Program-made: the position numbers and the translations under genes
Notes under the pieces: model-generated
What the model saw: only the letters and a program-made list of their open reading frames with translations
What the model was told of the DNA's origin: nothing
Databases searched by the model: none
Shown here: positions 2,824-17,249 of the stretch, in pieces
Numbering within the stretch: position 1 is the stretch's first letter
Layout of the letters: each line of letters begins with the position of its first letter
Origin: a virus
IMG/VR virus record: IMGVR_UViG_3300025009_000286
Span: 1-34,485 of that record
Strand: one strand, 5' to 3'
DNA length: 34,485 bases

Positions 2824-3141
2824 CTATTCCTCCAGCAGCTTGTGCCACTTCGCGGCAGCGGCTTGACACCAGACAGCCGCTTGGTCGGTGCCTGCTCTAT
2901 CCGTCAGCGCCCAGGCATCCAGTGCCTCGGCCGCTCGCGTCGCGGCTTCCCGTGTCTCCGGAGAATCGATAATATGTTTGACGGTCGGGCATTCGCAGTC
3001 GGCGGCGGCGTCGCCACACCAGACACAGCGGCCCGTGCGGCCTCCTCCAACATAGACGATTTCACCTACAATCCTGCACGTCTCCAGCGCGTTGAGGTGC
3101 GCGGCCATTGCTTCGGCGAATGTCGGCAACTTCCCGCTCAT
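2824..3141 (-). CDS. Hypothetical protein with Cys cluster
   Basis: A 105-residue protein starting MSGKLPTFAEAMAAHLNALE. The centre holds CVWCGDAAADCEC, a compact four-Cys cluster likely to bind zinc, followed by an alanine-rich helical C-terminus. It starts inside the stop of the clamp-like gene (ATGA). No family recognised. Confidence 0.6.
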   Translation of the reverse strand: MSGKLPTFAEAMAAHLNALETCRIVGEIVYVGGGRTGRCVWCGDAAADCECPTVKHIIDSPETREAATRAAEALDAWALTDRAGTDQAAVWCQAAAAKWHKLLEE

Positions 3142-3644
3142 GGCGCCACCTCGGTCAGTCCGTCCGCTTCGGCCCGGATCGGCATGATGAGCGCGATCCA
3201 CGTCTCACCGCGCATCCAGACCGGTCCCTCACCCTCGGCGCTCCACCCTACTTCACATGGCCCGTCCGGCACACAATCGAGAATGCGCGCGGCGAGCACG
3301 GCGTTGACGACGCGGCCGAGGAAGATCACCGGTCTCTCGGGAGCCGGCCAGAGGCGCCCTACCACTTGCCCGCAGCATGGACAGGGATCTCCCCATGCCG
3401 GAGACCCGAACCCTGCGCGCAGGTAGGCCACGGTAGACGGCGTGAAGGGTCCGGTCGTCTCCACCAGGATCTTGTGCACCGCGGGCGCGTCCGGCACGAT
3501 CTCTGCCGGCAGGTCCGAGCGGGCCAGCAGGCAGTACCCGTCCGTGGCGCAGCACCACGTCTTGCCGTCGTGCTCGACCGCAAAGGGCTTGCTGATGGTG
3601 GGCTGCCCGTGGTCACGAGAACAGAGCCGGCTCATATCGGTCAT
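3138..3644 (-). CDS. Mini sliding-clamp-like (DnaN-like) protein with zinc knuckle
   Basis: A 168-residue protein. Residues 26-41 (DGKTWCCATDGYCLLA) resemble the 'TDG..lA' edge strand of DNA polymerase III beta clamps. Residues 112-157 resemble the clamp's last domain: a VVNAVLAARIL helix, an acidic strand, then WIALIMPIR in place of the usual MPMR ending. Between them sits CPCCGQVVG (residues 88-96), an apparent zinc knuckle. Typical bacterial clamps are about 370 residues, so this would be a half-size version, as seen in some phage DnaN-like proteins. The ATG at 3644 has AGGTGGGG upstream and overlaps the preceding stop. The call rests on motif similarity only. Confidence 0.4.
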   Translation of the reverse strand: MTDMSRLCSRDHGQPTISKPFAVEHDGKTWCCATDGYCLLARSDLPAEIVPDAPAVHKILVETTGPFTPSTVAYLRAGFGSPAWGDPCPCCGQVVGRLWPAPERPVIFLGRVVNAVLAARILDCVPDGPCEVGWSAEGEGPVWMRGETWIALIMPIRAEADGLTEVAP

Positions 3645-5838: not shown

Positions 5839-7183
5839 ATTCTTTTTCCTGAAATCGTGTAAGTGGCGCGTTGAACCACAGCGTCGTTTCTCCGGTCGGT
5901 CCCTGGCGCTGCTTCTCCACCGACACCGTGGCCCACCCTGACGTGCCCCGCCGAAGTCCCGACAGCAGGAGCACCGCGTCGGCGTCCTGCTCCAGTGATC
6001 CCGAGTCCCGCAAGTCGCTCAGACGTGGCTTGTCGGGTGTGGCGTCCTTGCCCTTGCCCCCGCCCGTGGCGCGCTGCTCCGGCCCTCGATTCAACTGGCA
6101 GCACACCAGCACCGGGCACCGCAACTCTGCGGCAAGCCCCTTGAGCGACGCGCTGATTGCCGATGTGGCCTGCTCCTTGGACTGCGCGCCGCAACGGATA
6201 AGCCCCAGGTAGTCAACGACGATGAGCGCCGGGCCGTCCGGGTCGGTGCGCGTCAACCGCCACTGGCGACACCGGCCCAAGACCTGCGACAGCGCCCGCG
6301 CCTCACCGGCACGGATGGTCATCGGCAAATTGCAGATCAAGCGGTGCGCCTCGCTGATGGTGTCCAGTTCCGTGTCGCGCAACCCGGACTGCGAGAGGCG
6401 ATGCACCGGTATGCCCGACATCATCGCCACGAGGCGGTCAAGAAGCATTGTCCCGCTCATCTCCAGACTCTCGATGCACACGGGCACGCCCTCGACTGCG
6501 GCATGGAGTGCGGCAGCGGTGGTAAGCGCGGACTTGCCCATGCTCGGACGCCCCGCGATGAGGTACAGCCACTCGTCCCACCACTGACCAAGCAGCGTGC
6601 CCTCGTTGCCGTCGATGCAGCAGGAGCGGAGTCTGCCCCACTCGATGGGCACACCCCGTCGTGGCGCACCGTCGAGTGACGCAACCCAGTCCTTCGCGGA
6701 TTCGGGACGCGCTCCCATCGCATCGGGCACCGCGGCGATGAGCGCCTGTTGCCCGCGTGCTGTGATCTCCGTGGCCTCGCTGCCGTTGGCCGTGCTGGCG
6801 ATGATCGTCTCCATCGCGGCCCGCACGGCCCGCAGTTGCGCGAGACGGCGCACTTCCCGCGCCAGGTACGGCACGACAGCGGGAATCGAAGCGATGCCAT
6901 GTAGCGCGGTCAGGCCGGGCATTCCGCCGACGTTGGTCATGCCACCGCCGGACACGAGCCGACCGTACACGAGCGCAGGCGTGAGCGGCGCGGACTCGTC
7001 CCACAGCCCCTTGAACACCGCCCACAGTGCGCGGGCGTCCGGCGCGTGGAAGGATTCAGTGCCAAGCAGCGGCACCACGTCTTCCATTCCCTGCCCACTC
7101 CAGGTGTAGAGCGTGGCGACGAGTTCCCGCTCGACGGCACAGGCGGCGTCGAGATAGCCAGCACTATCCGCTTGCTGCACCAT
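5825..7183 (-). CDS. Replicative DNA helicase, DnaB type
   Basis: A 452-residue, full-length DnaB-like helicase. The N-terminal primase-interacting helical domain spans about residues 10-120. The RecA-like ATPase domain has Walker A in GRPSMGKS (211-218), the characteristic SLEMS (239-243), a Walker B segment ending VVDYLGLI, and the C-terminal block LRDSGSLEQDAD. It unwinds the fork as a hexamer. Its ATG is preceded by GGAGGATCGCT and overlaps the end of the initiator gene by 20 bases, an arrangement like initiator plus DnaB helicase in P22-type phages. This indicates theta replication with a phage-encoded helicase. Confidence 0.92.
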   Translation of the reverse strand: MVQQADSAGYLDAACAVERELVATLYTWSGQGMEDVVPLLGTESFHAPDARALWAVFKGLWDESAPLTPALVYGRLVSGGGMTNVGGMPGLTALHGIASIPAVVPYLAREVRRLAQLRAVRAAMETIIASTANGSEATEITARGQQALIAAVPDAMGARPESAKDWVASLDGAPRRGVPIEWGRLRSCCIDGNEGTLLGQWWDEWLYLIAGRPSMGKSALTTAAALHAAVEGVPVCIESLEMSGTMLLDRLVAMMSGIPVHRLSQSGLRDTELDTISEAHRLICNLPMTIRAGEARALSQVLGRCRQWRLTRTDPDGPALIVVDYLGLIRCGAQSKEQATSAISASLKGLAAELRCPVLVCCQLNRGPEQRATGGGKGKDATPDKPRLSDLRDSGSLEQDADAVLLLSGLRRGTSGWATVSVEKQRQGPTGETTLWFNAPLTRFQEKEYEPH

Positions 7184-8159
7184 AGCGATCCTCCTCCATC
7201 GTCAACAAGGTTGCTGCCCGGTCCTTCACCGCATCCGGGTGCGGGTGCTGGCCACCGACCTCCATCAATTCCTGCGCCGCCTTTGCGTACCACTTCCGCC
7301 TGGCCTCCTCCCCGACACCGGCCTTCTGTCTCGCGCGCTCCGGGTCACCGAAAACGTGGCGAAGCGTCGTCCATCCCTTATCGGTCGCATACTCGTCCGC
7401 CCACGTCGCATAGACGGCGAGCCGGCAATCCCACGCTGTCATCCCGACGTTGCGCCCGAGACACCGCAAGAGCGGCTTCATGGCTTCCCGTGTTGGCTTG
7501 CCAGGGAGTTTGAAGACGACGGCATGGAGTTGGGCAACATCCAGGGCTGTCTCGTAGAACGGGTTGGCCTTGCGTGGGCGGGTGTCCTCCGCTTCCAGTT
7601 GCAGTGCCGTCCGTTCATCGTCGTCAAGTGCGTCAGGTGTCGCGACAGCGACGAGGGCATGCGAAGCATGTTCCGGATCGATCTCGGATCTCGGATCTCG
7701 GATCTCGGTTTCGGTTTGCGGTTCCCGCTGGTTCCCCGCCGGTTCCCCGCCGGTTCCCGGAACCTTACGACTCTCGTGTTTTCGCGGAGTTGCAAGGCCG
7801 GACTCCCACGCTTGCCTTTTTGCCGTGACAGGGTTCGTAGCGGTAGCCGTCATGAGGTGCACGCTACCATCGTCGTTGTTGCGCAGAAACCCATCGGCTC
7901 TAAAGGCATTCAGAACGCGCGTCACCCGGTCCTCGCGTTCCCCCCCGAGCACTCTGGCGATGGCACCAGCCGTGACGTGTTCCGCCGGGACAATGATAGG
8001 TTCCTTGCCGATTTTGCAGCCGTGCCGCTCCGCGATGAACACGATTGCGTGGTAGACGCCCAGACCGAGCGATCGGTGCGGGCGCAGTTTGCCGTGCTCG
8101 AACCAATTCAGCGGGCACAGCCACATGCCCGCGAAGTGAGTCAGGATGGATTCAGGCAT
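7164..8159 (-). CDS. Phage replication initiator with winged-helix domain
   Basis: A 331-residue protein. The N-terminal ~110 residues look like the winged-helix DNA-binding domain of phage replication initiators, with PAEHVTAGAIARVLGG as recognition-helix region and a DGFLRNNDDGSVHL wing. A low-complexity linker follows (about residues 120-165), encoded by the iteron-like array at 7676-7764. The C-terminal part (about 190-310, with GMTAWDCRLAVYATWADEY) is helical and could contact the DnaB helicase encoded immediately downstream. The start has GAGGGACC upstream and overlaps the stop of a 43-codon gene. The layout matches lambda O-like initiators, which also carry the origin inside their own gene. 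Confidence 0.7.
   Translation of the reverse strand: MPESILTHFAGMWLCPLNWFEHGKLRPHRSLGLGVYHAIVFIAERHGCKIGKEPIIVPAEHVTAGAIARVLGGEREDRVTRVLNAFRADGFLRNNDDGSVHLMTATATNPVTAKRQAWESGLATPRKHESRKVPGTGGEPAGNQREPQTETEIRDPRSEIDPEHASHALVAVATPDALDDDERTALQLEAEDTRPRKANPFYETALDVAQLHAVVFKLPGKPTREAMKPLLRCLGRNVGMTAWDCRLAVYATWADEYATDKGWTTLRHVFGDPERARQKAGVGEEARRKWYAKAAQELMEVGGQHPHPDAVKDRAATLLTMEEDRYGAASG
7676..7764. repeat. Iteron-like array inside the initiator gene, candidate replication origin
   Basis: Four perfect tandem heptamers ATCTCGG occupy 7681-7708. With the flanking bases they give five GATC sites at 7676, 7680, 7687, 7694 and 7701. About 12 bp further on, GGTTCCC occurs four times at 7720, 7730, 7741 and 7752, spaced 10-11 bp (one helical turn), three copies followed by GCTG or GCC. 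The last copy forms the palindrome GGTTCCCGGAACC. GATC heptamers beside phased repeats resemble the P1 oriR plan, and repeats in an initiator gene resemble lambda ori. Confidence 0.65.
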
Positions 8160-8402: not shown

Positions 8403-10583
8403 CTACACGAGCCCGAGCGCCAACTGCGACTGGGCGCGCCGACTGGCATCAACGAGATTCCGGGCTGCGGTCTTGGCATACAGGGGCTTCAACTCGCACC
8501 CGATGAACTTCCGCCCGAACCGCAACGACACCACACCCTCAGATCCGATACCGGCGAACGGCGATAACACCACGTCACCCCGGTTGCTCCACAGACGCAC
8601 GACGCGCTCGATGGTCCCGAGTTGGAGCGGGCAGATGTGCCGGTCGTCCTCGTCAGACCTTGCCTCATGCACGTTCATCGTGTCGCTCTCGCGGATTCCG
8701 TACCAGATCGGCCGAGCCCATTCGATCCACTCGTCATTGGACAGATCCGGCTGAATCACGTCCGCGGGTTCGCCGGGCTTGCGAAACACGAGGATGTAGT
8801 CGGCGAGCGCAGGCCGAATCCAGGAGGCATCCTTGCGCATCTGCACGAACAAGAGCCCCTTGCTGTGTGTGCGGATGGCCTGAGCCTGTGGATCTTTGTC
8901 GATGCACACCTCGCCGTGGTACGTCCAGCCGTTCGTCTCGCAGCAATCGATGGTGTGCCCCCGGAAGTCCTTAAGTCCGATATGCCCGTCCCTGACCAGA
9001 AGAGCCGGCACCTGCGAAACGTGAATGCAGCACAGCCGGCCGGGCTTGGTGACGCGCATGAGTTCGCGTGCGACGAAACCAAAGTGATCGAAGAATGCTC
9101 TCTCGTTGCTACTGTTGCCCACGTCGCGCTCCGTCGCGGAGTACGTGTAGAGGGAAATGAACGGCGGAGAGAACACGGACAGGTCAATGCTTTCGTCATC
9201 CAGTTGTCCCATCTCCTCGACACAATCTCCCTGGTAGATTGTCCATCCATCGCCCTCGTACTTGTCCCGCTCTATCGTTTCCGTGGTCGTGCCCTTGCCT
9301 AGTTCTTCCATTTCCGTGCTCCTTGCGGCTGCGATCATTGTCGTCACCATTGCCTTGTTCTCGGATTCCTTGCGTCTGACATTGGCCACGATGTCGGTCT
9401 CATGGTCTGTCACGACGATCCACGCCTTGACCGGTCTCTGTTGCCCGTAGCGCCAGCATCGCCGGATGCACTGGTAATAGGACTCGAACGAGTCTCCGAG
9501 CCCAAGGAACACCATCGTTGCCGCGTTCTGGAAGTTCATCCCAAAGCCGCCGATCTTCGGCTTGGTCACGAGCACGCGCGTCTCGCCGTTCACGAACGCC
9601 ATGATTGCACGCGTCTTGTCCTCGGTGGAGTCCGCACCCGATACGTTGACCGCACCTGGAATCGCTCGCTGAGCATCTGTTGCCTCGTCGTTGAGGCCGC
9701 ACCACACGATGATCTGGCCGGGTGTTTCGTTGACCAGCCGGGCAGCGGCCTCAACGCGAGCCGTGACGCTGCCCTTGCGCACCCGAGATCGATCTGTAAT
9801 GCCTTGGAGCTTGCCGGGGAACAGCTCGCCGTCGCGGCGCCACTCGGTCCGTACCACGATATCCTCCACCGACAAGGCCGGCAGGACGAACGCGGAGCCA
9901 TCGTAGCCGAGGTCATCGGGTGTACGCAACGCCATCGCCCAGGAGGACAGCCACCGATAGAACGCTGGCCCGGCGTGCCCACGCATCCGCCAGCCCTCAT
10001 CGTCGTGGACAAAGAAGGACGCCAGCATTTCCGAGCGAGTCATGAGCCCGAGGAACTCCGCATGATTCGCCAGTTCAGCAATGTCATTCGGGCATGGCGT
10101 GGCAGTGCAACAGAGCTTGGCGGGGACATGCTTGAACTCGGAAAGCAGGACACCCCGAGTCTTGCCGTCGATTGACTTGAGAATGCTGCTTTCGTCCAAC
10201 ACCAGCGCGTCAATCGGAGCGCCGATGAATCGATGGATGATCTCGTAATTGCCGATGTTGATGCCTGGCAGAAGTCCGTGTCCGTCGCGTGTGCGGTGAA
10301 CTTCGATGCCGAGATTGAGACCCTCTCGAATCGTCTGCTCGCCCACGGAGAGCGGCGCCAGAATGAGCGCGGTTCCACCCATGAGCCGCGCCCACTCAAG
10401 CTGCATCAACGTCTTGCCAAGGCCGCAATCTGCGAAGATTGCAGCCTTGCCCTTACGGCAAGCCCAACGCACGATGTCTGACTGGAAGTCGTACAGTATA
10501 GGATTCACCGCACTGTCGCCAACATCGCGGCCAGCGTCATGTACGATAGGACGCTTGCTGTCGAGGAACTCCGCATATGTCAT
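8403..10583 (-). CDS. Helicase / DNA methyltransferase fusion protein
   Basis: A 726-residue two-domain protein. Residues 1-430 form an SF2 (SNF2-like) helicase: Walker A ADCGLGKT (51-58), motif II as DESS (130-133) instead of DEAD/DEAH, TATP (160-163), motif V TKPKIGGFGMNFQ (340-352), and motif VI QCIRRCWRYGQ (371-381). Residues 440-726 form an amino-methyltransferase with catalytic SPPF (472-475) preceding the AdoMet motif FAGIGSEG (676-683), the beta-type permuted order. It would translocate on DNA and methylate adenine or cytosine amino groups. It has GGGAGGACAAACT before its ATG and overlaps the preceding stop. No specificity domain or nuclease is visible, so it is probably protective rather than restrictive. 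Confidence 0.82.
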   Translation of the reverse strand: MTYAEFLDSKRPIVHDAGRDVGDSAVNPILYDFQSDIVRWACRKGKAAIFADCGLGKTLMQLEWARLMGGTALILAPLSVGEQTIREGLNLGIEVHRTRDGHGLLPGINIGNYEIIHRFIGAPIDALVLDESSILKSIDGKTRGVLLSEFKHVPAKLCCTATPCPNDIAELANHAEFLGLMTRSEMLASFFVHDDEGWRMRGHAGPAFYRWLSSWAMALRTPDDLGYDGSAFVLPALSVEDIVVRTEWRRDGELFPGKLQGITDRSRVRKGSVTARVEAAARLVNETPGQIIVWCGLNDEATDAQRAIPGAVNVSGADSTEDKTRAIMAFVNGETRVLVTKPKIGGFGMNFQNAATMVFLGLGDSFESYYQCIRRCWRYGQQRPVKAWIVVTDHETDIVANVRRKESENKAMVTTMIAAARSTEMEELGKGTTTETIERDKYEGDGWTIYQGDCVEEMGQLDDESIDLSVFSPPFISLYTYSATERDVGNSSNERAFFDHFGFVARELMRVTKPGRLCCIHVSQVPALLVRDGHIGLKDFRGHTIDCCETNGWTYHGEVCIDKDPQAQAIRTHSKGLLFVQMRKDASWIRPALADYILVFRKPGEPADVIQPDLSNDEWIEWARPIWYGIRESDTMNVHEARSDEDDRHICPLQLGTIERVVRLWSNRGDVVLSPFAGIGSEGVVSLRFGRKFIGCELKPLYAKTAARNLVDASRRAQSQLALGLV

Positions 10584-10864: not shown

Positions 10865-11154
10865 GCAGCGCCACAGGAGATCAGGTCTTCCATCGTGCAT
10901 TCCAGCGCCGCGCTTAGCGGGTCGATGTGCCACGGATGCAACAGTGCCTTTTTGTGAAATAACACGAGGAGGTATCCGCGGTCCATCGGCCAGCCGTATC
11001 GTCCACAACGGGTGGCGAGATGCGCCCAAGAGCAGTTTCGCCGTCGGCGCAGTTCGTCAATCCTGTCCCAGCGTATCCAGTATCGAGGATCCTCAATCAG
11101 AGTCACGTTATGCGCCATGCGATAAGCCAAATCTGATGGCGAGAAACGTTTCAC
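10855..11154 (-). CDS. HTH regulator-like protein
   Basis: A 99-residue protein with a GTG start that overlaps the stop of the small membrane protein (GTGA). The segment RRRRNCSWAHLATRCG has the spacing of a basic helix followed by a turn, and HPWHIDPLSAALECTMEDLI resembles the last helices of a lambda-repressor-like domain, where the 'cs.e.L' pattern is common. It may be a small DNA-binding regulator. Confidence in the fold is moderate because the recognition helix is not clear. Confidence 0.5.
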   Translation of the reverse strand: MKRFSPSDLAYRMAHNVTLIEDPRYWIRWDRIDELRRRRNCSWAHLATRCGRYGWPMDRGYLLVLFHKKALLHPWHIDPLSAALECTMEDLISCGAAWS

Positions 11155-11273
11155 GTCCGTCCTCGCGGAAACAGGAACAGCGCGCCGAGGGCCAGCAGCA
11201 CCGCGCCAGTGACCACAGCGAGCCAGAAGTCAGGACACGATCGCGCGCACAGGTGCTCGCCGATGCGCTGCAT
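11151..11273 (-). CDS. Small single-span membrane protein
   Basis: A 40-residue protein, MQRIGEHLC followed by a hydrophobic helix from about residue 16 to 36 (FWLAVVTGAVLLALGALFLF), ending in basic residues PRGRT. The charge pattern suggests an inner-membrane span. Its ATG overlaps the stop of the DUF1874-like gene (TGATG) and its stop overlaps the GTG of the next gene. Small spans of this type occur in superinfection-exclusion or holin-like proteins; its place in the early operon favours the first, but this is inference. Confidence 0.5.
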   Translation of the reverse strand: MQRIGEHLCARSCPDFWLAVVTGAVLLALGALFLFPRGRT

Positions 11274-11551
11274 CACGGCGTCACCTCCACGAGCGTCCAA
11301 GGGCCGTCACCGGGCGGACCGACGAGTACCCGGTCGCCGGGGCGGATCACGACCGAAAGCGGCAAGGGTCTGTAGGACACGCCGAGCACTTCCGAGAGGG
11401 CCGCGCAACCGAGATCGGACGTGAAGCGTAGCCCCTCCTCAGCCTCCGCTTGCTGCGCGGCAAGGCACGCCTCCCGCTCCGTCAGCGGCGTGAAACGCAC
11501 GCCGCAGGGGCGCGGGAACATGCGGTCGGTGAGTCCACGGGCGATCAACAT
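11273..11551 (-). CDS. DUF1874 / STIV B116-like protein, distant relative of AcrIII-1 ring nucleases
   Basis: A 92-residue protein. The family pattern is an N-terminal strand ending 'MF/ML', an acidic helix, a short 'aiGHeaT..Ls.llG' helix, and a strand 'v...pGD..lv'. Here these appear as LTDRMF (7-12), EREACLAAQQAEAEEG, SDLGCAALSEVLG (45-57), and LSVVIRPGDRVLV (65-77). AcrIII-1 members degrade cyclic tetra-adenylate to block type III CRISPR signalling, using a histidine in the GH motif. That position is Cys49 here, so activity is doubtful; it may bind without cleaving or have another role. GGAGG precedes the ATG. It follows recT and overlaps a small membrane protein gene. Confidence 0.55.
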   Translation of the reverse strand: MLIARGLTDRMFPRPCGVRFTPLTEREACLAAQQAEAEEGLRFTSDLGCAALSEVLGVSYRPLPLSVVIRPGDRVLVGPPGDGPWTLVEVTP

Positions 11552-11627: not shown

Positions 11628-12524
11628 CTACTCGCGGCCTGCGCCCCACATGTCGCCCGTCTCTCCGGCGGGCGGCGCGGGCAGGTCGCCCGGGCTCTTG
11701 GGCTCCGGCTGTGCGGGTGCGGGCTGCGGCGCCGTGCGGGATTCCGCCTCCGCTCGCAGGGTGTCGATGAGCATGTCGGCCTGCGCCTCGGTCTCAGGGC
11801 CGGCCGGGAAGCCGAGCTTGTTCGACAGCGCCGAGACGGTCTGCGCGCCGAGGTGCTTGCCGAGCACGGCGAGAAGCGTCGTCTGTCTGTCCGTGACGGG
11901 TGGCTCGCTCTGCGCCTGGAGGATCGGGCGCTTCTCTGGCCGGAGCACCGGATCGGCCGCGACCTCGATGATGGCGCCTTGGGCGTCGGCCACCTCCTCT
12001 GGCGTGTAGAGCCCGGCGCCGACTTCCGGGTAGACGGCGCGGACCAGATCAGCACTGGCGCGTGCCCGGAGCATGGCGGCCGGGTAGTTTTTCCAGTTGT
12101 CCTTGTTGGCCAAGCCCGCCCGCTTCGCGTCGTCCATCGTCCAGGAGATGCGGACAGGCTTGGGCTGCCCACGCCGCGACGTCTCCCACGTGGCGCGGCC
12201 CGCGCTTCCATCCTCGATCATGCACAGATACTCGCAGTCCGGGTGCCGCATCGCCAGCGCCCGAAGCAAACTGGCGTCCATCGTGGTCCGCCCCTTGATC
12301 ACGTGGATCTGCCGGAGCGCCGTGATGCTGTCGATTCCGAGCGCGCGGCCGGTGAGCATGACGATCATGACGTCGGCCGGCTTGTCCCGGATCGACTCCG
12401 GGACGAGCGCGCTCTTGCAGAGCAACTGCGCGAATTTCATGGCCTCGCTCACCGTGCCGAAGTCCAGCGCGCCCGTCGTGTGTCGCGTCACCATCGTGGT
12501 GGTCTCTTTCTCTTCCTCTCCCAT
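11628..12524 (-). CDS. recT: RecT-family single-strand annealing protein
   Basis: A 298-residue protein of the RecT/Bet-like recombinase family. The N-terminal two-thirds carry the core: AMKFAQLLCKSALVPESIRDKPADVMIVMLTGRALGIDSITALRQIHVIKG, then DASLLRALAMRHPDCEYLC and the AMLRARASADLVRAVYPEV region. RecT anneals complementary strands in phage recombination and often helps concatemer formation. The C-terminal 60 residues are Pro/Glu-rich and probably unstructured. Its GGAGAGAGAA ribosome binding site supports the start at 12524. No exonuclease partner of the RecE, lambda Exo or YqaJ type is visible in the operon. Confidence 0.85.
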   Translation of the reverse strand: MGEEEKETTTMVTRHTTGALDFGTVSEAMKFAQLLCKSALVPESIRDKPADVMIVMLTGRALGIDSITALRQIHVIKGRTTMDASLLRALAMRHPDCEYLCMIEDGSAGRATWETSRRGQPKPVRISWTMDDAKRAGLANKDNWKNYPAAMLRARASADLVRAVYPEVGAGLYTPEEVADAQGAIIEVAADPVLRPEKRPILQAQSEPPVTDRQTTLLAVLGKHLGAQTVSALSNKLGFPAGPETEAQADMLIDTLRAEAESRTAPQPAPAQPEPKSPGDLPAPPAGETGDMWGAGRE

Positions 12525-12533
12525 TTCTCTCTC

Positions 12534-13364
12534 CTATGCCGCCCGCGCTGCCGGGGTGTTGTCGCTCCAGATCTTGACACCGGCAATTTGCACGGTGCCC
12601 TTGGTGGCCCGGACCACGGCGGAGATCCGCTGCGCGTCCGGGATCAGGTACTCGCGCGGGACGGCGCGGGGGTCGATCACCTCCGCGTGCCACGTCTCGC
12701 GGTACGAGATCCCCGCGAGCTTGATCGGCGCGGCGGCTTGCACGCGGTTGGCGGCCTTCGCCGCTTCCTCGCGCTTGACTACCTCCTGGTAGTCCGCCTC
12801 GCGCTGCCGGGCCTCGGCGGCCTTGCGCTCCGTCTCGACGGCATCGGCCGCGTCCTGGGCGGCGAACTCGGCCCCGATGCTGCCGGAGAGCGCGGCGTCA
12901 AGCTCGGCCTTGTCCGCCGCTGCCTTGACTGTGGCGAGCCGGAGCCGTTCCTCTTCCTCGCGTGCAACCCGCTCCAGCTCGGCCTGCTTCTGCCGCTCTG
13001 CCTCCTCCTCGCGCAGTCTCCGCCGCTCGATCTCGGCGCGGGCTTCGGCCTTGCGCTGCTCCTCGGCGGCGTAGTCCGCGAGCCCGCGCTTGACCGTGGC
13101 CTCTGCCCGGTCCAGGGCCTCGGTCGGGGCCCGGAAGAGGTCCATGACGGCCTTCTTGGCCGCGTCAAGGGGGGTCGTGATGCCCTTGCGGCGGTCGTCC
13201 AGCGCCTTGCCCGCGCTCTTGATGTCGCGGAGCAAGACGCCAGCGTGCGCGTACGTCTCTGTGTCGCGGACGATCAACGCCGCGCCGCGCTCGGCGAGAG
13301 CCGCGACCAGCGCGCGGTCGGGCTCGCTCAGTGCGGTAGGGACTGCGATCTGCTGCATCGCCAT
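12534..13364 (-). CDS. Coiled-coil protein that accompanies recT
   Basis: A 276-residue protein. The first 85 residues are helical. A very charged coiled coil follows (about 95-200) with runs of Glu/Arg/Ala, and then a C-terminal globular domain (AGISYRETWHAEVIDPRAVPREYLIPDAQRIS...GTVQIAGVKIW) of a type found in phage proteins encoded beside recT. GGAGG precedes several ATG codons; the one at 13364 has the best spacing and overlaps the previous stop. The function is not established; the location suggests a recombination accessory factor or a single-strand DNA partner. Confidence 0.6.
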   Translation of the reverse strand: MAMQQIAVPTALSEPDRALVAALAERGAALIVRDTETYAHAGVLLRDIKSAGKALDDRRKGITTPLDAAKKAVMDLFRAPTEALDRAEATVKRGLADYAAEEQRKAEARAEIERRRLREEEAERQKQAELERVAREEEERLRLATVKAAADKAELDAALSGSIGAEFAAQDAADAVETERKAAEARQREADYQEVVKREEAAKAANRVQAAAPIKLAGISYRETWHAEVIDPRAVPREYLIPDAQRISAVVRATKGTVQIAGVKIWSDNTPAARAA

Positions 13365-13600
13365 CATCCCCTCCGCGCGGCTTCTTCGGCCGCCTCGGCG
13401 AGGCCCAGCGGGGCGGTCTTGCCCTTGCGGGGCGTGCGCCGCACCGGCACGCACTCGCCCTCGAGCGCGTCCAGGGCCTCGTAGATGAGGCTCCAGACAT
13501 ACTGCTCGCGGGACTCCGAGGCGGGCGCTGGCAGATCGCCGAGCCGCTTTCGGATGGTGGCGCAGTGCGCCCCGATCCTCTCCCTGTCGCTGTTTTCCAT
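13364..13600 (-). CDS. Small hypothetical protein upstream of the recT pair
   Basis: A 78-residue protein starting MENSDRERIGAHCATIRKRL, mainly helical, with a basic RRTPRKGK stretch and an Ala/Glu-rich C-terminal helix. AGGAGGTAGGTTCC gives a strong start. Its stop overlaps the ATG cluster of the coiled-coil gene (GGATGATG). It may bind single-stranded DNA or assist the recombination proteins, but nothing in the sequence proves that. Confidence 0.6.
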   Translation of the reverse strand: MENSDRERIGAHCATIRKRLGDLPAPASESREQYVWSLIYEALDALEGECVPVRRTPRKGKTAPLGLAEAAEEAARRG

Positions 13601-14305: not shown

Positions 14306-14334
14306 AGAATAACCCGCCGCCGCAGGGGTGTCAA
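14306..14334 (-). promoter_or_regulatory. Main early leftward promoter
   Basis: On the minus strand a perfect -35 TTGACA (14334-14329) and a -10 TATTCT (14311-14306), four of six to consensus, have an ideal 17-bp spacing. It lies in the longest intergenic region of the window and points to the early operon. It is the best promoter I see. Confidence 0.75.
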
Positions 14335-16031: not shown

Positions 16032-17249
16032 CTACCTTCCCTGGACCGAAAGCAACGCGTAGTCGCCCGCCACCCAAGACAAGCTGCCTGCGCCGGTGCG
16101 CGGGATACGGATTACACCGCCCGTGATGGTCAGGAGCGCATGTGGAACATGCACATCATAAGACGACCACGTGGCTATATAGAATGTGAGAATATAACCA
16201 TCTATGATGGTAAAACCAGTGTCGATTACGATGGCCAGGCGGTCCACATCCTCTGCTGTGACGAGGCGACGAATCACCTGGGACTGAGAGACCAGAGGAG
16301 CAATGCCCGCCTCGGACGCAGGATTGCAACGCAATCGGGCTCCCGCGGTTGTCTCCGTAATGGCGAGCGTCGCCCCCGCCACGACCGCGCGAAGCTGGAT
16401 CGCGCGGTCTGCATCCGGGTTCGCCGCAACGAGCACAGCGCTCTGGTTGGCAGTGATGGCCGCCTTGAGGTTGACAGCGGAATCGGCGGCAGTCCCGCCG
16501 ATCACAACGGCAATGTTGCCAGGTAGCACTCCGCCGCCAGAGTCAAATTCGTAGGTGGCGGCGATGCCGCCAACTGTGATCGTACAGGCGTCCGCGTCAA
16601 GGGCGTTGACTTTGACGCGGAGGTGGTTCGTCGCCTTGCGGCCAAGGGGTGCCGTGCCAGCAACCGTTATCGGCGGGTTCCCCGCCGCGAGCGGCCCGCC
16701 TAATGCCGCGACGATTCCTGCCTGCTCCGCCGTCAGCAGCATCGGGCTCCAGACGGCAGCGCCAACAGCGGGCGAAACACACTGGAAGGCCCGTCCCGTT
16801 GCGGTGTTCAGCCAGAGCGATCCGGCGACGTAGCCGAGGCCCACTCCGCCCACGTTGTTGTCGTCGGTGGCTGTCGGGTCAACGCCCGCGCCCAGGTTGC
16901 TCTTGATCGCTGTGTACGTGCCCGCGCCCGTCTTGCGCAGAACGCCCTCGGCGGGCACGACGGCGGAGTGCTGGACTGCAGAAACTGCCGCCGAGGCTAT
17001 CGCCGCCGCTTGGGCGGCGGCGGCCTTCGCCTGTGCTCCCGCTGCGCTTTCGACGGTGGACGCGCCAACGCCGTGGGTGCCCGTGGTGAGCCCGGCATGG
17101 GTAGATAGTTGCGTCTCGGATGCGTCTGCGGCTGCGTTGGCGGCCAGTTCGTCGTCAGTCGCCATCGGATTTGTGCCGCTCGGCGAGGTCGCCCCATGAA
17201 TCGCGGCAAGCTCCGCCGCGCTGAGATTCTGGTTTGCTCGGTTGATCAT
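16032..17249 (-). CDS. Tail-fibre-like virion protein
   Basis: A 405-residue protein. The N-terminal half (1-105) is alanine-rich and coiled-coil-like (AAGAQAKAAAAQAAAIASAAV), typical of fibre or appendage stalks. The middle has AVWSPMLLTAEQ resembling the phage fibre segment that ends 'W..'. The rest is beta-rich with repeated G/A/V/T strands, ending with TGAGSLSWVAGDYALLSV, a lectin- or fibre-tip-like ending. It probably belongs to host recognition or virion decoration, but the family is not certain. It lies downstream of other tail proteins with small gaps. Confidence 0.55.
   Translation of the reverse strand: MINRANQNLSAAELAAIHGATSPSGTNPMATDDELAANAAADASETQLSTHAGLTTGTHGVGASTVESAAGAQAKAAAAQAAAIASAAVSAVQHSAVVPAEGVLRKTGAGTYTAIKSNLGAGVDPTATDDNNVGGVGLGYVAGSLWLNTATGRAFQCVSPAVGAAVWSPMLLTAEQAGIVAALGGPLAAGNPPITVAGTAPLGRKATNHLRVKVNALDADACTITVGGIAATYEFDSGGGVLPGNIAVVIGGTAADSAVNLKAAITANQSAVLVAANPDADRAIQLRAVVAGATLAITETTAGARLRCNPASEAGIAPLVSQSQVIRRLVTAEDVDRLAIVIDTGFTIIDGYILTFYIATWSSYDVHVPHALLTITGGVIRIPRTGAGSLSWVAGDYALLSVQGR

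What the first reader, a model, noticed from the sequence alone, without database searches (positions are those of the whole stretch)
11273..11551. DUF1874-like protein with the ring-nuclease histidine replaced by cysteine
Seen: order and spacing of the DUF1874/STIV B116 pattern, with SDLGCAALSEVLG in the helix and an RPGDRVLV strand. Known: AcrIII-1 members of this family cleave cyclic tetra-adenylate and disarm type III CRISPR, and an active-site histidine follows the glycine. Inference: Cys49 occupies that position, so the protein either binds the signal without fast cleavage, uses different chemistry, or has diverged to another task. A natural cysteine variant next to recT and a tiny membrane protein appears unusual.
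Basis: partly seen in the sequence, partly recalled or inferred. Interest (0 to 1): 0.7.

Follow-up and report, generated by a model that had tools for sequence, protein, structure and literature searches.

The report
Lidless, active-site-stripped viral ring-nuclease relative
A small gene in an uncultured phage encodes a remote relative of a viral enzyme that shuts off a CRISPR alarm signal, but it lacks the enzyme's active-site residues and its lid, so it is probably a repurposed binding protein or a worn-out copy rather than a working enzyme.

Summary
The 92-aa gene is real, on the minus strand (11551..11273), between recT and a 40-aa membrane protein, and coding by codon usage. Pfam, NCBIfam, PHROGs and tblastn do not recognise it. 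Profile-profile comparison shows it to be a remote DUF1874/STIV B116 homologue: probability 90.6-94.8%, score 35.9-43.5, against at most 22.5 for 1,200 control ORFs and 19.8 for 700 shuffles. A model built with DUF1874 relatives reaches pLDDT 88.5 and matches B116 and AcrIII-1 at Z 10-11. The model made without relatives is poor, yet B116 is its top hit (Z 3.8).

Cys49 is the likeliest occupant of the histidine site (alignment confidence about 6/10; a 4-residue gap beside it makes this uncertain). The other pocket residues are gone too: N8 is Arg5, T50 is lost, R66 is Pro64, and the loop carrying R85 and E88 is deleted. So it fails the tests for a working AcrIII-1. Best reading: a retained DUF1874 fold turned into a non-catalytic binder in an early recombination operon. 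No relative was found outside one identical contig. New variant of a known kind; moderate interest.

The parts
11273..11551 (-). 92-aa DUF1874-fold protein (P0001), remote homologue of STIV B116 / AcrIII-1
   Evidence: ORF and ATG after GGAGG; coding score positive only in this frame; hhalign against DUF1874 profiles with nulls; predicted fold
11405..11410 (-). Gly48-Cys49 codons, the place of the family's Gly46-His47 (SIRV1 gp29 numbering)
   Evidence: hhalign pairs Cys49 with His at confidence about 6/10; MAFFT alternatively deletes the His
11537..11539 (-). Arg5 codon, in place of the conserved Asn8 (N in 133 of 140 members)
   Evidence: alignment A5, conservation
11360..11362 (-). Pro64 codon, in place of the conserved Arg66 (R in 141 of 142 members)
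11300..11320 (-). Gly78 to Pro84: short turn where the family has the beta4-beta5 lid with R85-L-x-E88-G; the lid is deleted
   Evidence: alignments A5 and A7, global hhalign
11628..12524 (-). RecT-like ssDNA annealing protein, upstream in the same operon
   Evidence: PHROG 561 E 3.8e-38
12534..13367 (-). exonuclease-like protein upstream of recT (start codon a guess at the first Met)
   Evidence: PHROG 10477 E 1.2e-18
11151..11273 (-). 40-aa protein with one hydrophobic stretch; its ATG overlaps the stop of P0001 (TGATG) and is preceded by GGAGG
   Evidence: sequence and translation
14306..14334 (-). sigma70-like promoter (TTGACA-17-TATTCT) ahead of the leftward operon
   Evidence: pattern scan, 2 found against 0.2 expected in the region; consensus match only

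Best explanation
P0001 is a phage-encoded descendant of the DUF1874 (STIV B116 / AcrIII-1) family that keeps the small alpha/beta fold (shown by profile comparison; supported by prediction). It has lost the catalytic histidine with its neighbouring threonine, the pocket asparagine and arginine, and the whole beta4-beta5 lid that carries the conserved Arg and Glu (shown by alignment). It therefore most likely does not cleave cyclic tetra-adenylate (inferred). The most probable role is a dimeric, lidless cradle used as a non-catalytic binding protein, made early with the phage recombination genes. Its ligand is unknown: a different anionic nucleotide, nucleic acid, or a protein partner (all inferred). 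Two arginines unmatched in the family (Arg5 and Arg10, at the Asn8 and Asn13 positions of the beta1-beta2 loop) are candidate new contacts (inferred).
For: Remote homology with nulls. Predicted fold pLDDT 88.5 and Z 10-11 to 2x4i, 2j85 and 6scf. B116 is rank 1 even for the poor model made without relatives. Among 143 members: His47 142/143, Thr50 142/143, Arg66 141/142, Arg85 140/141, Asn8 133/140, Glu88 132/141; P0001 keeps none of them. In AFV3-109 exactly these residues (Asn6, His45, Thr48, Arg64, Arg83, Glu86) line the pocket and hold the dimer, and the beta4-beta5 connection forms the vault (PMC1796864). Mutating the family histidine alone abolishes cA4 cleavage (H495A, PMC7293037). Start signal, coding bias and tight translational coupling argue for a gene in use. 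DUF1874 abuts recT in another virus: L146, where it overlaps the recT start.
Against: No ligand or binding data. The high-confidence model was given DUF1874 relatives as its alignment, so its fold is partly imposed; the model without them has pLDDT 45.8. No diverged relatives, so retention under selection cannot be measured. Net charge is slightly negative (9 R/K, 11 D/E), which does not favour nucleic-acid binding. Dimerisation is not tested.
Confidence: 0.5

Rival explanations
1. Decaying remnant: a former AcrIII-1 gene that has lost its function and persists because it sits in a tightly packed, translationally coupled operon.
For: All six conserved pocket positions lost at once plus two deletions. 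A degenerate tandem DUF1874 copy in L152 lost the same six positions beside an intact copy. No relatives found in viral or genome collections.
Against: Intact frame with a good Shine-Dalgarno sequence and clear coding bias. The hydrophobic core and strand pattern are kept. Both deletions fall cleanly at loop or helix ends.
Confidence: 0.23
2. One reading: a cA4-binding protein whose Cys49 replaces His47, giving binding without fast cleavage, or cysteine chemistry (cA4 sponge or slow ring nuclease).
For: hhalign pairs Cys49 with His in local, global and relaxed modes. A DUF1874 branch with an equally short Gly-to-Gly helix segment (GHADTAAVLG in L221, similar in L225 and others) shows that a shortened helix is compatible with keeping the residue after the glycine. 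Sponge and slow-nuclease behaviour is known in another cA4-binding family, Csx15 (PMC13148439).
Against: Arg66, Arg85, Glu88 and Asn8 are all missing and the lid is deleted. The same paper argues that sponging is ill suited to type III CRISPR because much more signal is made. Cys/His pairing is only about 6/10 confident.
Confidence: 0.1
3. Phage sponge or decoy for a different immune nucleotide signal (CBASS, Thoeris or Pycsar type), using the open cradle with new arginines. This is one specific form of the best explanation.
For: Viral sponges are common and can derive from other nucleotide-binding folds (Acb4, PMC11722364). Arg5 and Arg10 are unmatched in 143 family members at those positions. 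Early-operon position.
Against: No direct evidence for any nucleotide ligand; I know of no sponge with this fold; slightly acidic overall.
Confidence: 0.12
4. Not a DUF1874 homologue at all; the resemblance is chance.
For: No hit in Pfam at E up to 10; own-built HMM gives only 3.8 bits.
Against: hhalign scores far outside 1,200-ORF and shuffle nulls and covers 64-85 columns. The model made without relatives ranks B116 first. True members such as L221 and L222 also miss Pfam's cut-off.
Confidence: 0.05

Closest known systems
AcrIII-1 (SIRV1 gp29, THSA-485A DUF1874; PDB 6scf, 2x4i)
   Same: Predicted alpha/beta fold over the whole length, order of elements, FTS-x-x-G turn, L-S-x-x-L-G helix end, x-P-G-D-x-x-x-V strand, carried by a virus
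   Different: No His47, Thr50, Asn8, Arg66, Arg85 or Glu88; helix 4 residues shorter; lid deleted; no evidence of cA4 cleavage
STIV B116 and AFV3-109 (PDB 2j85, 2j6b)
   Same: Same fold (Z 11.0 and 10.1); B116 is also the top hit of the model made without relatives
   Different: Those have the long beta4-beta5 connection that vaults or walls the cavity, and the conserved pocket
Crn2 domain of Csx1-Crn2 (PDB 8y7f, 8y7g)
   Same: Same fold (Z 11.1)
   Different: Crn2 is a CRISPR-associated fusion with an active His495
Degenerate tandem DUF1874 in L152/L267 (IMGVR_UViG_3300031950_000001)
   Same: All six pocket positions lost
   Different: Keeps full helix and loop length, passes Pfam's cut-off (46.8 bits), lies next to an intact copy

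Membership tests
DUF1874 / STIV B116-like (PF08960), as a homology group | profile similarity above chance | tested here: met
   hhalign 90.6% and 94.8% probability; score 35.9 against at most 22.5 in 1,200 ORFs, 43.5 against at most 19.8 in 300 shuffles
DUF1874 / STIV B116-like (PF08960), as a homology group | Pfam gathering score of 26 bits | tested here: not met
   No match at E up to 10 or in the whole window. Not decisive: GHADTA-bearing relatives L221 and L222 score 24.3 and 23.4
DUF1874 / STIV B116-like (PF08960), as a homology group | B116 fold of the monomer | tested here: met
   Z 9-11 to the DUF1874 entries, next unrelated 2.3. Caveat: alignment held DUF1874 relatives; model without them is poor but B116 is rank 1 at Z 3.8
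AcrIII-1 / Crn2 ring nuclease | active-site His after the conserved Gly, and T three residues on | tested here: not met
   GCAALS instead of GHxxTA; His in 142/143 members
AcrIII-1 / Crn2 ring nuclease | Asn8 and Arg66 of the pocket | tested here: not met
   Arg5 and Pro64 at those columns. Arg61, three residues away, cannot be excluded as a substitute for Arg66
AcrIII-1 / Crn2 ring nuclease | beta4-beta5 lid with R-L-x-E-G (Arg85, Glu88) | tested here: not met
   Lid replaced by the short turn GPPGDGP
AcrIII-1 / Crn2 ring nuclease | dimer with a cA4 cleft | not testable with these tools
   Only monomers can be predicted
AcrIII-1 / Crn2 ring nuclease | cA4 cleavage and relief of type III CRISPR immunity | not testable with these tools
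   Needs an assay
Phage sponge proteins (Acb2, Acb4, Tad1, Tad2) | sequesters an immune nucleotide | not testable with these tools
   Needs a binding assay; Acb4 is described as dsRBD-like

The most novel reading that the evidence does not exclude
A phage has taken the AcrIII-1 ring-nuclease fold, removed its catalytic centre and lid, added new arginines to the cradle, and uses it as a non-catalytic sponge or decoy for an immune signal other than cA4, expressed early with its recombination genes.
Probability: 0.12. Interest if true: 0.75.

Novelty: new variant of a known kind. Interest (0 to 1): 0.4.

Why it matters
DUF1874 is known as the fold of the viral cA4 ring nuclease. A natural version without catalytic residues and lid would show that viruses reuse the scaffold for something else, and gives a minimal 92-aa form for asking what the bare cradle can bind. 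It also shows that current family models miss stripped-down relatives, so counts of DUF1874 in phages are probably low, while some remote hits will not be anti-CRISPRs.

Tried and rejected
Direct recognition failed: Pfam, NCBIfam, PHROGs, PADLOC and the PDB by sequence; the only PHROG and PDB hits were insignificant (E 0.27 and 0.73). tblastn in phages found nothing, and in plasmids only E >= 2 hits to Rhizobium and Paracoccus. Diverged relatives: peptide and degenerate DNA scans of IMG/VR returned only one contig, identical to the window over 13.4 kb; genome contigs returned none. 775 whole genomes from two phyla (those of genomes holding DUF1874) gave only noise, rejected because their hhalign probability to DUF1874 was about 1% or less. 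HMMER with my own DUF1874 profile gave 3.8 bits, inconclusive. Ungapped register (Ser45 at the His) was considered and set aside because three alignment modes and the FTS-x-x-G match favour Gly48=Gly. Erwinia jumbo phages suggested by the viral fold library gave no HMM hit. No selection test was possible: the second contig is identical. No known sponge protein was listed among the fold matches, which excludes nothing.

Full report
What is there. The window is a virus record of 34,485 bases from a contractile-tailed phage (sheath, baseplate, fused capsid-protease), about 65% G+C, with no near relative in the phage collection. The finding is a 92-codon gene on the minus strand, 11551..11273, with GGAGG four bases before ATG. 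Its codon usage scores +0.278 bits per codon in its own frame and negative in the five others. It lies in a leftward operon after an exonuclease-like gene and a RecT-like gene. Its stop overlaps the ATG of a 40-aa one-helix membrane protein (TGATG). A promoter-like site lies upstream of the operon at 14334..14306.

Is it DUF1874? Single-sequence methods say nothing, and searches for the Pfam model PF08960 in the window are empty. I collected real members: SIRV1 gp29, STIV B116, the THSA-485A protein and others, 80 loci from viral contigs and 47 from genomes. An alignment of the first ten gave hhalign probability 69%. A 73-sequence profile gave 90.6%, score 35.9, where 1,200 other ORFs reached at most 22.5 and 400 shuffles at most 19.4. 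A 49-sequence profile rich in bacterial and phage members gave 94.8%, score 43.5, against at most 19.8 for 300 shuffles, and aligned end to end in global mode. HMMER with the same family gave only 3.8 bits. Sequence homology is therefore remote but well supported.

Fold. AlphaFold2 without relatives gave a poor model (pLDDT 45.8), yet B116 was the best of 864 chains (Z 3.8, within 0.2 of the next row). That model carried no DUF1874 input, so this is weak but independent support. With 49 DUF1874 relatives the model reached pLDDT 88.5 and pTM 0.79, matched all listed DUF1874 structures at Z 9-11, and the next entry scored 2.3. Because those relatives were supplied, this shows the sequence is compatible with the fold rather than proving it.

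What is missing. In 143 family members His47, Thr50, Arg66 and Arg85 are 99% conserved, Asn8 95% and Glu88 94% (SIRV1 gp29 numbering; partly biased, since many members were fetched with GH patterns). AFV3-109's structure shows the equivalents lining the pocket and bridging the dimer, with the beta4-beta5 connection as vault (PMC1796864), and the histidine acts as general acid in AcrIII-1 (PMC7371418; H495A abolishes cleavage in Crn2, PMC7293037). P0001 has Arg5 for Asn8, Pro64 for Arg66, no Thr50, and a seven-residue turn in place of the lid with Arg85 and Glu88. Two arginines, Arg5 and Arg10, stand where none of the 143 members is listed with an arginine.

The cysteine. Gly48 aligns with the family glycine. 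The helix is 4 residues shorter than in most members, so the gap can fall before or after Cys49. hhalign puts Cys49 on His with confidence about 6/10; MAFFT deletes the His. In the model Cys49 is the second residue of helix 48-56. The pairing is likely but not certain, and it is only one of several losses.

How it most likely works. With acid, pocket and lid gone, fast cA4 cleavage is improbable. I commit to a non-catalytic binder built on the open cradle, at 0.5; a decaying remnant follows at 0.23. Shown: gene, operon, homology, losses. Inferred: dimer, binding, early expression. Precedents: in L146 an intact DUF1874 overlaps the start of recT, and in L152 a degenerate copy that lost the same six positions sits about 220 bases before an intact one.

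Known or new. No relative beyond one identical contig was found. I found no description of a lidless DUF1874 in the papers searched, which is a limited library. I file it as a remote DUF1874 homologue, not as an AcrIII-1: new variant of a known kind, interest 0.4.

Noticed in passing
L152 1469-1780 and 2001-2312 (= L267 3001-3312 and 3533-3844): Tandem DUF1874 pair in a 144-kb viral contig: one intact, one that lost all six conserved pocket positions (S, N, A, K, P, K). No close relative of the degenerate copy was found in viral contigs.
   Followed up: partly
L146 1914-2327: Intact DUF1874 gene whose end overlaps the start of a RecT gene, a precedent for DUF1874 beside recombination genes.
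   Followed up: partly
L221, L225, L227, L236, L237 (about 3001-3270 of each locus): Bacterial DUF1874 branch with a six-residue helix deletion but intact GHADTA and lid; L221 falls under Pfam's cut-off, so Pfam undercounts the family.
   Followed up: partly
L234, L235, L241, L244, L246: Aquificales DUF1874 members have Ser-His instead of Gly-His at the active site.
   Followed up: no
viral fold library: J7KCD4, A0A1B2IEJ3, A0A1B2IEC3, A0A1B2IEG6: Uncharacterised Erwinia jumbo-phage proteins (phiEaH2, Kwan) match the model by fold, several per genome; possible unannotated DUF1874-like paralogue family. A profile search of the two records found nothing.
   Followed up: partly
window 8403-10583 minus: 726-aa fusion of a SNF2/helicase-like N-terminal part and an N6/N4 DNA methyltransferase (Pfam N6_N4_Mtase 62 bits, Helicase_C 35 bits).
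   Followed up: no
window 16032-17249 minus and 7164-8159 minus: Proteins of 405 and 331 aa with no match in Pfam or PHROGs.
   Followed up: no
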